From the NCBI GenBank assembly GCA_005883405.1, contig VBGG01000050.1, forward strand, positions 2,529 to 37,601: a DNA stretch of 35,073 bases, in the 5' to 3' direction. The translations under genes and the position numbers were made by a program. The notes beneath the pieces are model-generated. The model saw only the letters and a list, made by a program, of their open reading frames with translations, was not told the DNA's origin and did no database searches. This DNA comes from Chloroflexota bacterium. GTDB taxonomy: Bacteria; Chloroflexota; UBA6077; CF-72. Below, piece after piece: positions 3,731-6,620 of this stretch (position 1 is its first letter; each line of letters opens with the position of its first letter).

Positions 3731-3961
3731 TCATGGGACGCCCGCTTCCCGCTCGATGATGACCGGGCGTTCGATACTCTGACGGCGGTAGGTGCCTGGT
3801 GAAACGCCGAAGTCGCGCTTGAATGCCTGGGCGAGCATAAGTCCCGGAATCTGGGCGAAATCTCGAACGTTGCGGGTCATCAGGGTCAGTCCGTGTTCGA
3901 GCGCCGTCGCGGCGATGAGCGCATCGCCGAGGCTCATGCACCAATGCGCGGTGGCGCACAA
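3731..3961 (-). pseudogene. Chimeric remnant: PIN-domain (VapC-like) C-terminal fragment joined in frame to an AraC-family C-terminal fragment
   Basis: Translation ...SLGDALIAATALEHGLTLMTRNVRDFAQIPGL (PIN/VapC C-terminus) runs directly into AFKRDFGVSPGTYRRQSIERP (AraC HTH C-terminus). In-frame TAG just upstream of 3961. Confidence 0.65.
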
Positions 3962-3997
3962 TGCCTATGGTCGGTTTCTGCAGGTCCTGGAGCATCG

Positions 3998-5734
3998 GTG
4001 AAGACGACGCAAGGCGATGGATGGCGGGCGGCCCGCCGCGACGAGGTCGAGCTGTACGTGCGGACGTACAGCACGGTACTTCGCACCTCCGGCGAGGTCC
4101 ACTTGCGCGCATTCGAGCCAGCGCATCGCAACGTGGATCCCAGCCTCCACCCGGGCGCGAGCAGCACCGACGTCGACGCTGGCGCGCTGATCTACGCGGT
4201 CAACCGGCTGCCAGCGGTCATCAGCGCGGTCGAGCGGGTACTTCTCGGTCAACTGCCAGAGGACTTCGCCCAGGCTCTCGGCGCCAGCATCCAGGATTGG
4301 CAGCCGGTGCAGGCGCCCGCGCGACGCCGTCAGTGGCACTACGACGGCGCGCGCACGCTGGCGGTGCATGTGGCCAGCGCGTCCGACATCGACGATGTCA
4401 TTCCGACGCTCGTCGCGTTTCAGATCGAATGGAACAAGCTGCACGCGCGGCTTGCGGCCGAGCAGGCCGTCCAGGCGCTCGTGGAACGCAGCCCCATCCT
4501 CGACGAGGTGTCGCTCGAACAGGTAGGCGCAGGTCTGGGGATCGCACCCGACGACTGGCAGCGGCTGCAGGCTGGCCTCGCCACAGAATTCTGGCCGACA
4601 CTCCGCAGGATCGCCGCTTCCGAAAAGCAAATCGCCGTGCGCCTGCTGGGCGGTAGCCACATCGGCTACGCCAAGCTGACCAATCGCTGGTGGCAGCCCA
4701 TCGGGGCGGCGCTGACCGAGGGCGGGCTGCGCGGTCGACCCGTGTACTTCGTGTCCTCGAACCTCCACAGCCTGGTCAACATGCTGTCGGGCTACGCGCC
4801 GCGCCGCGCCAAGATGCTGTGGGCCTTTCTCGAGGAGTGCGGCCGTGCCGACCGGTCGAGCGAAGCGGCCCAGCTCGCCGAATTGCGCGGTCGGGCCAAC
4901 ACCGAAAACGTGCTGTACTACGCGGCGCGCTTGTGGCACCAGGCCCGGGGGACCGCGGCCGCGCGGCAAGAGCGCGCGGAAGAGGAGCGAGCGCGTGGCA
5001 TCACGACGATCGCACCGGTCGCCGGTGCCGACGTCGGCGCCCAGATCATCGACCTGGCCAGGGTGCGAGTCGCGGACGTGGACCCGCGCCTGCGTGATCT
5101 GGCGGTGGCTGGCCCCACGTCAGACGCCGTGATTCTCAACATCGACTATCCGCTGGGGATGGCGGGCTACCACATTCTGCGCCAGGTCGCCGAGGCAGTG
5201 GACAACCTGGCCGGCGTGTACGTGCTGGGCAAGGCCGCCACGCTGAACGGCGACATCGGCGACGTACTGATCGCGGACTCCGTTTACGACGAGCACACCC
5301 ACAATACCTACAGCTTCGACAACGCCTTCAGCTACGCGGATGTCGCACCCTTTCTCGAGCGCGGCTCGGTTCTGGACAATCAGCGGGCGGTGACCGTCAA
5401 GGGCACGTTCCTGCAGAACCGCGACTACCTGGACCTCTTCTATCGCGAGATGTACACGATCGTGGAGATGGAGGCAGGCCCGTACCTGGCGGCGTTGTAC
5501 GAGGCGAGCCACGTCAGCCGACATCCGCTCGGCGAGGCGGTCCACTTCCGCCAGCTGCCGCTGGACGTCGGCTTCATCCACTACGCCTCGGATACCCCGT
5601 ACACGCGCGCGCGCACCCTCGGCAGCCGCAGCCTGTCGTTCGAGGGTGTCGATTCGACCTATGCGTCGGCGGTGGCCATCCTGCGCCGCATCCTGTGCGC
5701 GCGGGCGGACGGTCCGAACGGCGAAGTCCACTGA
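3998..5734 (+). CDS. Uncharacterised conserved protein (~578 aa) with nucleoside-phosphorylase-like C-terminal motifs (tentative)
   Basis: Long ORF; GTG at 3998 is a more plausible start than 3893 because the earlier part overlaps the PIN/AraC remnant. C-terminal AVILNIDYPLGMAGYHILRQVAE, GVYVLGKAATLNGDIGDVLIADSVYDEHT and IVEMEAGPYLAALYE resemble the phosphorylase superfamily. Confidence 0.7.
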   Translation: MKTTQGDGWRAARRDEVELYVRTYSTVLRTSGEVHLRAFEPAHRNVDPSLHPGASSTDVDAGALIYAVNRLPAVISAVERVLLGQLPEDFAQALGASIQDWQPVQAPARRRQWHYDGARTLAVHVASASDIDDVIPTLVAFQIEWNKLHARLAAEQAVQALVERSPILDEVSLEQVGAGLGIAPDDWQRLQAGLATEFWPTLRRIAASEKQIAVRLLGGSHIGYAKLTNRWWQPIGAALTEGGLRGRPVYFVSSNLHSLVNMLSGYAPRRAKMLWAFLEECGRADRSSEAAQLAELRGRANTENVLYYAARLWHQARGTAAARQERAEEERARGITTIAPVAGADVGAQIIDLARVRVADVDPRLRDLAVAGPTSDAVILNIDYPLGMAGYHILRQVAEAVDNLAGVYVLGKAATLNGDIGDVLIADSVYDEHTHNTYSFDNAFSYADVAPFLERGSVLDNQRAVTVKGTFLQNRDYLDLFYREMYTIVEMEAGPYLAALYEASHVSRHPLGEAVHFRQLPLDVGFIHYASDTPYTRARTLGSRSLSFEGVDSTYASAVAILRRILCARADGPNGEVH

Positions 5735-5763: not shown

Positions 5764-6267
5764 GTGACGGACGTCGGCGTCGACACGATCAAGGTTTACA
5801 GCACACCCACTTGACCCTGGTGTCACCGAGCGATGGAGTTCCTTCGCAAGCAGGGTGTCGCCTACCAGGAAGTGGATGTAACCAAAAACCCGCTGGCCGC
5901 ACAGGAGATGGTGCGCCGCACCGGGCAGATGGGGGTGCCCGTGATCACCGACAGCCAGGAGGCGATCGTCGGGTTCGACCTGCCCCGTTTACAGCGCATG
6001 GCGGCGCGGCACAGCCGGCCCGGGCTCGGCTTGCGGGTTAAAGACGCCGAGGACGGCCCGGGAGCATACGTCGGTTCGGTTCGACCGGATTCCCCCGCCG
6101 CGCGGGCCGGTATTGAAGTTGGCGACGTGGTCGACGAGCTTTCTGGAGCGCCAGTCCGCAACGCGGCTGACCTGGAGCAGATCGCCGCTGCGCGGCACCC
6201 GGGCCAACCCACGAGCATTACCCTCCGCCGCGGCACCGAGCGGCGAACACTCATCCTGCCAGGCTAG
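5764..6267 (+). CDS. Glutaredoxin-like domain fused to a PDZ domain; candidate selenoprotein with in-frame TGA (5812-5814) at the first catalytic Cys position (U-P-W-C)
   Basis: Reading GTG 5764 through the TGA: VTDVGVDTIKVYSTPT-[TGA]-PWCHRAMEFLRKQGVAYQEVDVTKNPLAAQEMVRRTGQMGVPVITDSQEAIVGFD (Grx fold with GVPVI cis-Pro motif), then a PDZ-like GLGLRV...GAYVGSVRPDSPAARAGIEVGDVVDELSGAPVRNAADL. The listed ORF (5833-6267) begins only after the TGA. Confidence 0.75.
5830..5847 (+). promoter_or_regulatory. Putative bacterial SECIS-like hairpin downstream of the in-frame UGA
   Basis: GCGATGG (5830-5836) AGTT (5837-5840) CCTTCGC (5841-5847): 6 Watson-Crick pairs with one U-U mismatch. Tetraloop AGUU has G in its first two positions. 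Loop starts 22 nt after the UGA. An outer ACCCTG (from 5814) / CAGGGT (from ~5851) pairing is also possible. Confidence 0.45.
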
Positions 6268-6344
6268 TCGCCCGCCTGTTTCGCTCGGGCTCGCCGCTTG
6301 ACAGGCTGGCGGGCTCGGCTGCAACCGGGCGAGCCGCACTTCCC

Positions 6345-6620
6345 GGGCGGAATGACAATCCAATAGATGTTTCTGGCTCTCGCCAGGGTAGCCACCGCCG
6401 CCGAACGGCCGAGACGCAACGCCTGTTGTCCCGCGCGGGCGGAATGTCAATTCAAAGGATGTTTCTGGCTCTCGCCAGGGTAGCCACCGCCGCCGAGCGG
6501 CCGAGACGCAACGCCTGTTGTCCCCGCGCGGGCGGAATGTCAATTCAAAGGATGTTTCTGGCTCTCGCCCGGGAAGTCACCCGCCGCCGAACGGCCGAGC
6601 GGCAAATCCTGCCAGGGGTA
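6345..6620. repeat. Three tandem direct repeats, unit ~92-93 bp
   Basis: Units start with GGGCGGAATG(A/T)CAAT(C/T)CAA at 6345, 6437 and 6530 and share GATGTTTCTGGCTCTCGCCAGGGTAGCCACCGCCGCCGA(A/G)CGGCCGAGACGCAACGCCTGTTGTCCC; the third unit is more diverged. Confidence 0.93.

What the first reader, a model, noticed from the sequence alone, without database searches (positions are those of the whole stretch)
5812..5857. SECIS-like hairpin with AGUU apical loop positioned after the in-frame UGA
Seen: GCGAUGG-AGUU-CCUUCGC (5830-5847), 6 WC pairs with one internal U-U; loop begins 22 nt after the UGA. A further ACCCUG (from 5814) / CAGGGU (from ~5851) pairing could close a larger domain. Established: bacterial SECIS elements lie immediately 3' of UGA within the coding region, usually with a small apical loop carrying a G (often GU) about 16-37 nt downstream. 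Inference: fits SelB recruitment, but short GC-rich hairpins are easy to find by chance.
Basis: partly seen in the sequence, partly recalled or inferred. Interest (0 to 1): 0.75.

Follow-up and report, generated by a model that had tools for sequence, protein, structure and literature searches.

The report
Selenocysteine signal in glutaredoxin-PDZ gene
The small RNA hairpin is a real signal, conserved across many Chloroflexota bacteria, that tells the ribosome to read a stop codon as the rare amino acid selenocysteine in a glutaredoxin fused to a PDZ domain; this kind of signal is well known, but the fused protein is not on the lists of known selenoproteins that could be checked.

Summary
Confirmed. 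The hairpin GCGAUGG-AGUU-CCUUCGC (5830-5847) lies 22 nt after an in-frame UGA (5812-5814) that replaces the first Cys of a glutaredoxin active site (STPT-U-PWC) in a 167-residue Grx-PDZ fusion (5764-6267). Folding energy alone does not beat shuffles (z -0.7, -1.3). Comparison decides: of 37 Chloroflexota homologs (window included), 27 have TGA at this codon, and all 27 keep a stem-loop there with GU in the loop. There are compensatory changes (C-G/U-A, A-U/G-C, A-U/G-C/C-G) and strong synonymous constraint (Leu CTT 25/27, against 0/10 in Cys homologs). Cys homologs scattered among the Sec ones lack the stem. The window's genome encodes SelA, SelB and a UGA-containing formate dehydrogenase whose hairpin has a GGUCU loop. 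tRNA-Sec and SelD were not found in this 90%-complete MAG, but a same-genus genome has both. The window's stem carries one substitution (AAG to AUG) breaking a pair that is intact in its relatives, and the outer ACCCUG/CAGGGU pairing is not conserved. New member of a known kind: a bacterial SECIS in a UxxC glutaredoxin selenoprotein, with a PDZ fusion that I did not find catalogued.

The parts
5764..6267 (+). Grx-PDZ selenoprotein gene, GTG start to TAG stop, 167 residues with UGA read as Sec at residue 17
   Evidence: purifying selection on both sides of the UGA
5788..5946 (+). glutaredoxin domain (Pfam match, residues 9-61; model strands and helices run to about residue 83)
   Evidence: PF00462, 1.2e-18; AlphaFold model
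6013..6252 (+). PDZ domain (about residues 84-163)
   Evidence: PF13180 2.3e-13, PF00595 2.7e-11; AlphaFold model
5812..5814 (+). in-frame UGA, selenocysteine codon (UPWC motif)
   Evidence: TGA at the same codon in 27 of 37 homologs, TGC/TGT in the rest
5830..5847 (+). SECIS upper stem-loop GCGAUGG-AGUU-CCUUCGC, loop 5837-5840 with GU at 5838-5839
   Evidence: conserved and covarying in TGA homologs
5834..5834 (+). U of AUG codon that makes the U.U mismatch in the stem; the six relatives in the same register have AAG and an unbroken 7-bp stem
5814..5856 (+). possible outer pairing ACCCUG (5814-5819) with CAGGGU (5851-5856); not conserved, probably not part of the element
3893..5734 (+). upstream DUF6909 gene that ends in an ordinary TGA stop (5732-5734), showing that UGA is also used as stop here

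Best explanation
The hairpin is a bacterial SECIS element in the coding region of a Grx-PDZ selenoprotein gene. The ribosome meets the UGA at 5812; SelB carrying Sec-tRNA(Sec) binds the loop of the hairpin just downstream (GU at 5838-5839) and delivers selenocysteine, so translation runs on to the TAG at 6265-6267. The product is a glutaredoxin with a UPWC active site and a C-terminal PDZ domain; Sec is the attacking nucleophile towards disulfides or related oxidised groups of partner proteins, and the PDZ domain probably holds partners by a peptide tail. Shown here: conserved UGA, conserved and covarying stem-loop, absence of the stem in Cys homologs, SelA, SelB and a second UGA gene in the genome, Grx and PDZ domains by profile and model. 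Inferred: SelB binding, Sec insertion, redox role, PDZ partner binding, cytosolic location.
For: UGA on the catalytic Cys position. TGA at the same codon in 27 of 37 homologs, all with a stem-loop with GU in the loop. Covariation in 20 sequences of the main register: 95.8% of cells paired, 13 cells changed on both sides against 3.5 in shuffles, slid registers much worse. Leu CTT 25/27 in TGA genes against 0/10 in Cys genes and 10% of Leu codons elsewhere in the same genes; codons +6 and +8 end in G in 27/27. Hairpin codons show no synonymous difference from same-genus relatives while about 60% of synonymous sites in the gene differ. Cys forms lie scattered among TGA forms on the tree and lack the stem. 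SelA and SelB in the genome; FDH-N alpha with in-frame TGA and a GGUCU-loop hairpin. tRNA-Sec and SelD with UGA in a same-genus genome.
Against: Energy of the window's hairpin is no better than shuffles. The window's stem has a U.U mismatch not seen in relatives (-6.6 against -10.4 kcal/mol), and the covariance model from the other register does not report the window. tRNA-Sec and SelD were not found in this assembly. No expression or binding data.
Confidence: 0.92

Rival explanations
1. The family carries real SECIS elements, but the copy in this genome is decaying: the stem mutation weakens SelB recruitment and the genome may have lost tRNA-Sec and SelD, so the UGA now mostly stops translation.
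For: Window-only AUG in the stem; tRNA-Sec and SelD not found in the assembly.
Against: The 167-codon frame is otherwise intact and under purifying selection after the UGA; SelA, SelB and a UGA-containing FdhA with a canonical-looking hairpin are present; the MAG is 90% complete in 682 contigs and selA runs to a contig edge; same-genus genomes have tRNA-Sec.
Confidence: 0.05
2. The UGA is a true stop or a sequencing error for UGC/UGU, and the hairpin is a chance GC-rich fold; a shorter protein may start at AUG 5833.
For: Energy not above shuffles; loose SECIS geometry is common (13.5% of positions); a 144-residue ORF starts at 5833.
Against: TGA at the same codon in 26 other genes from 25 other genomes, each with the hairpin; covariation; CTT and other synonymous constraint only where TGA is present. 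A start at 5833 would cut off the active site.
Confidence: 0.02
3. The organism reads UGA as an ordinary sense codon (changed genetic code), so no SECIS is needed.
For: It would also open the frame.
Against: The upstream DUF6909 gene, matched end to end by its profile, stops at TGA 5732-5734; the genome has SelA and SelB; the hairpin is conserved only in TGA genes.
Confidence: 0.01

Closest known systems
Bacterial SECIS (bSECIS) consensus model (as given in PMC13188914)
   Same: Immediately 3' of UGA inside the coding region; loop of 4 nt (5 in most relatives); G in the first two loop positions, followed by U; spacing 22 nt, within 16-37; stem within 4-16 bp.
   Different: One U.U mismatch in the window's stem; the hairpin alone is -6.6 kcal/mol, short of the -7.5 limit, which is met only with flanking sequence (-10.2 over 39 nt).
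E. coli fdhF/fdnG SECIS (PMC8659212)
   Same: Stem-loop downstream of UGA with GU in the loop (G23, U24). The same genome's FdhA has a hairpin with loop GGUCU.
   Different: E. coli needs a bulged U17 in the 5' strand; most relatives here have an unbroken stem, and the window has a U.U mismatch at a different spacing from the loop G.
Selenoprotein glutaredoxin cGrx1 of Clostridium oremlandii (PMC7642778)
   Same: Glutaredoxin with U(C)PxC active site; best solved-structure matches to the Grx part are 84-residue chains named Glutaredoxin, 7c10 and 7c12, which I take from memory to be this protein.
   Different: No PDZ domain; a clostridial protein paired with MsrA, a partner not seen near this gene.
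Trx7/PDZ domain-containing (seleno)protein, NF041199
   Same: A redoxin domain joined to a PDZ domain in a selenoprotein.
   Different: Thioredoxin_7 with CxxU (PMC13188914, PMC9312934), not Grx with UxxC; the window matches only its PDZ part, 30.4 bits against a cut-off of 300.
YruB-type (TIGR02196) and Uxx-star (NF041212) glutaredoxin-like proteins
   Same: Best NCBIfam matches to the Grx part: 84.8 and 61.1 bits.
   Different: Both below the curated cut-offs (88.55 and 66); neither model includes the PDZ domain.

Membership tests
bacterial SECIS element | in-frame UGA with the hairpin directly downstream in the coding region, spacing 16-37 nt | tested here: met
   UGA 5812-5814, loop from 5837, spacing 22 nt
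[quoted passage not shown]
   loop AGUU; GU in the loop of all 27 TGA homologs
bacterial SECIS element | upper stem of 4-16 bp, conserved with compensatory changes | tested here: met
   six WC pairs plus one mismatch in the window, 7-8 bp in most relatives; covariation
bacterial SECIS element | MFE of -7.5 kcal/mol or lower | tested here: inconclusive
   hairpin alone -6.6, 39 nt from the UGA -10.2; not better than shuffles
bacterial SECIS element | Sec machinery in the genome (SelA, SelB, SelD, tRNA-Sec) | tested here: inconclusive
   SelA and SelB present; SelD and tRNA-Sec not found in the incomplete MAG but present in a same-genus genome
bacterial SECIS element | binding by SelB and UGA readthrough | not testable with these tools
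   needs a reporter or binding assay
glutaredoxin selenoprotein (PF00462, UxxC) | glutaredoxin domain with Sec codon at the first Cys of CxxC, with Cys homologs | tested here: met
TIGR02196 YruB-family glutaredoxin | score over the curated cut-off (88.55 bits) | tested here: not met
   84.8 bits
NF041212 Uxx-star | score over the curated cut-off (66 bits) | tested here: not met
   61.1 bits
NF041199 Trx7/PDZ selenoprotein | score over the curated cut-off (300 bits), redoxin part included | tested here: not met
   30.4 bits, PDZ part only

The most novel reading that the evidence does not exclude
A Chloroflexota-wide family of Grx-PDZ selenoproteins, not yet catalogued, in which a Sec redoxin is targeted to client proteins by a PDZ domain; its SECIS slipped by one base in one clade (4-nt loop with an Arg codon in the 3' arm, against a 5-nt loop with a Ser codon), and the hairpin was lost with each separate Sec-to-Cys change.
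Probability: 0.5. Interest if true: 0.5.

Novelty: new member of a known kind. Interest (0 to 1): 0.38.

Why it matters
Automatic annotation is likely to cut this gene at the UGA or start it at AUG 5833, losing the active site. Calling it right adds a redoxin to the selenoproteome of mostly uncultured Chloroflexota. The Sec/Cys sister pairs are a natural test of what happens to a SECIS once the UGA is gone, and the PDZ fusion gives a testable idea of how a Sec redoxin finds its clients.

Tried and rejected
Energy against shuffles: uninformative. Loose SECIS geometry: too common to mean anything alone (13.5% of positions). Outer stem ACCCUG/CAGGGU: not conserved. Rfam: no match in the window. 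Covariance model R1, built from the other register, gives the window's register weak scores and does not report the window, so it is not used as evidence for the window. Conserved gene neighbours: none shared with the window; only one ORF cluster recurs next to the gene in two same-genus genomes. The genome-contig scan used Cys-codon patterns and so returned Cys relatives. The SelD match in G000 is under the cut-off (92.8 against 125 bits) and its protein looks like another AIRS-family member (by eye). Whole-model Foldseek hits are PDZ domains of HtrA-type proteases. Changed genetic code and sequencing error considered and rejected (see rivals).

Full report
Observation. On one sequence alone it is not exceptional: 46/200 shuffles of 5805-5870 and 22/200 of 5812-5857 fold at least as well, and a synonymous-codon control on the window alone gives p 0.16. 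Loose SECIS geometry fits 13.5% of all positions; the stricter geometry (GU in a 4-5 nt loop at 20-25 nt) fits 0.09% of positions and 2 of 861 TGA triplets, ours included.

The gene. Reading UGA as a residue gives a 167-residue protein from GTG 5764 to TAG 6267: a glutaredoxin domain (Pfam 1.2e-18) and then a PDZ domain (2.3e-13). The UGA falls on the first Cys of CPWC. The AlphaFold model has mean pLDDT 90 with the secondary structure of Grx followed by PDZ; pTM is 0.59, so the arrangement of the two domains is not settled. I saw no signal-peptide-like stretch before the Grx domain (by eye, no predictor run), so a cytosolic location is inference.

Relatives. Searches of 151 genomes of the phylum and of all 29 held genomes of the class gave, after reading the DNA, 37 homologs with the motif, the window included: 27 with TGA at this codon and 10 with Cys. 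Thirty of them are full-length Grx-PDZ (26 TGA, 4 Cys); seven match the Grx part only (1 TGA, 6 Cys). Named Cys relatives on contigs of the same length as two of these are labelled Chloroflexi (L106, L107). Every TGA homolog has a stem-loop at the same place with GU in the loop. Two registers occur: GCGAAAG-AGUUU-CUUUCGC and variants (20 sequences), and GCGAAGG-AGUU-CCUUCGC (7, the window included). On the tree these seven lie in one clade (99/95) together with one Cys form, L024.

Covariation. For the 20 sequences of the first register 95.8% of cells pair; 13 cells change on both sides against 3.5 in shuffles; the covariation score is 0.259 against 0.125; no shuffle reaches these three values, and slid registers do much worse. 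The number of pairs with a double change (3) is not exceptional by shuffles (60/500). Pair types seen: C-G/U-A at stem position 2, A-U/G-C at position 5, and A-U/G-C/C-G closing the loop. Two or three sequences break the pair at position 1 or 2, and one the loop-closing pair.

Synonymous constraint. In the TGA genes the conserved Leu is CTT in 25 of 27, and CTC in the two whose partner codon changed to AGA; in the 10 Cys genes it is CTC or CTG, never CTT (Fisher p 2e-7). CTT makes up 10% of Leu codons later in the same genes. Codon +6 (Ala, Val or Thr) and codon +8 (Glu, Gly or Ala) end in G in 27/27. Between the window and its same-genus relatives about 60% of synonymous sites differ over the gene, yet five of the six hairpin codons are identical and the sixth (ATG against AAG) is a replacement. 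The mean longest stem is 7.35 in TGA genes against 4.5 expected from synonymous resampling, and 3.6 against 3.6 in Cys genes (the first 20 TGA genes).

Sec and Cys forms. Cys forms are scattered among TGA forms: 4 changes, at least 3 forced by well-supported branches (the root is by midpoint, so the direction Sec to Cys is inferred). The sisters L190 (TGA) and L027 (Cys), joined at 100/99, show the point: the TGA gene has the full stem; the Cys gene keeps the 5' arm and lacks the 3' arm. The genomes of all four full-length Cys forms (G065, G113, G073, G013) still have tRNA-Sec.

Machinery. The window's genome encodes SelA and SelB side by side on C615. SelA is 79% and 74% identical to those of two same-genus genomes, which argues against a foreign contig. 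It also has an FDH-N-type alpha gene with one in-frame TGA (ARI-U-HSSSVPG) followed by a hairpin with loop GGUCU. tRNA-Sec and SelD were not found; the assembly is 90% complete in 682 contigs and selA runs to a contig edge. G145 of the same genus has tRNA-Sec and a SelD with UGA, and G156 has tRNA-Sec. UGA still serves as a stop here: the upstream DUF6909 gene ends in TGA at 5732-5734.

What is odd here. The window's stem carries AUG where the other six members of its register have AAG, which costs one pair (hairpin -6.6 against -10.4 kcal/mol). It may be real and tolerated, the start of decay, or a sequence error; these tools cannot tell. E. coli SECIS needs a bulged U17 as well as G23 and U24 (PMC8659212); most relatives here have an unbroken stem, in line with the remark that many bacterial SECIS do not resemble those of E. 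coli (PMC13188914).

Known or new. The element fits the bSECIS model of PMC13188914 in loop, stem and spacing; the energy limit is met only with flanking sequence. Sec glutaredoxins are established (cGrx1 of C. oremlandii, PMC7642778; list in PMC13188914). In the two reviews searched the only PDZ selenoprotein is Trx7/PDZ, a different redoxin with CxxU, and no NCBIfam model found covers Grx-PDZ. A Grx-PDZ-like protein is annotated by its domains in Candidatus Chlorohelix allophototropha (its codon was not read). So: a known kind of signal and a known kind of enzyme, in an architecture I did not find catalogued as a selenoprotein.

Noticed in passing
window 6344-6617: Three tandem copies of a 92-nt GC-rich repeat (CGGGCGGAATGTCAATTCAAAGGATGTTTCTGGCTCTCGCC...) in the intergenic stretch downstream of the gene.
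   Followed up: no
window 3893-5734: DUF6909 protein directly upstream of the selenoprotein gene on the same strand, 29 nt apart; function unknown, and not found as a conserved neighbour in relatives.
   Followed up: partly
L225 (G000:C610:2958-3713): FDH-N-type formate dehydrogenase alpha in the same genome with an in-frame TGA and a hairpin with loop GGUCU: a second selenoprotein gene.
   Followed up: yes
L082-L100: SelD itself carries an in-frame TGA in nearly all relatives; in those read the motif is HGAG-U-ACK.
   Followed up: partly
L191 (G155:C126): A second TGA-containing glutaredoxin in one genome, matching only the Grx part, with the same CGAAAGAGUUUCUUUCG hairpin.
   Followed up: no
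L024 and L027: Cys forms that keep the 5' arm and loop of the SECIS but lack the 3' arm, like relics after a Sec-to-Cys change.
   Followed up: partly
G156:C41 and G156:C171: Two tRNA-Sec matches in one same-genus genome; a second copy or contamination (about 6%).
   Followed up: no
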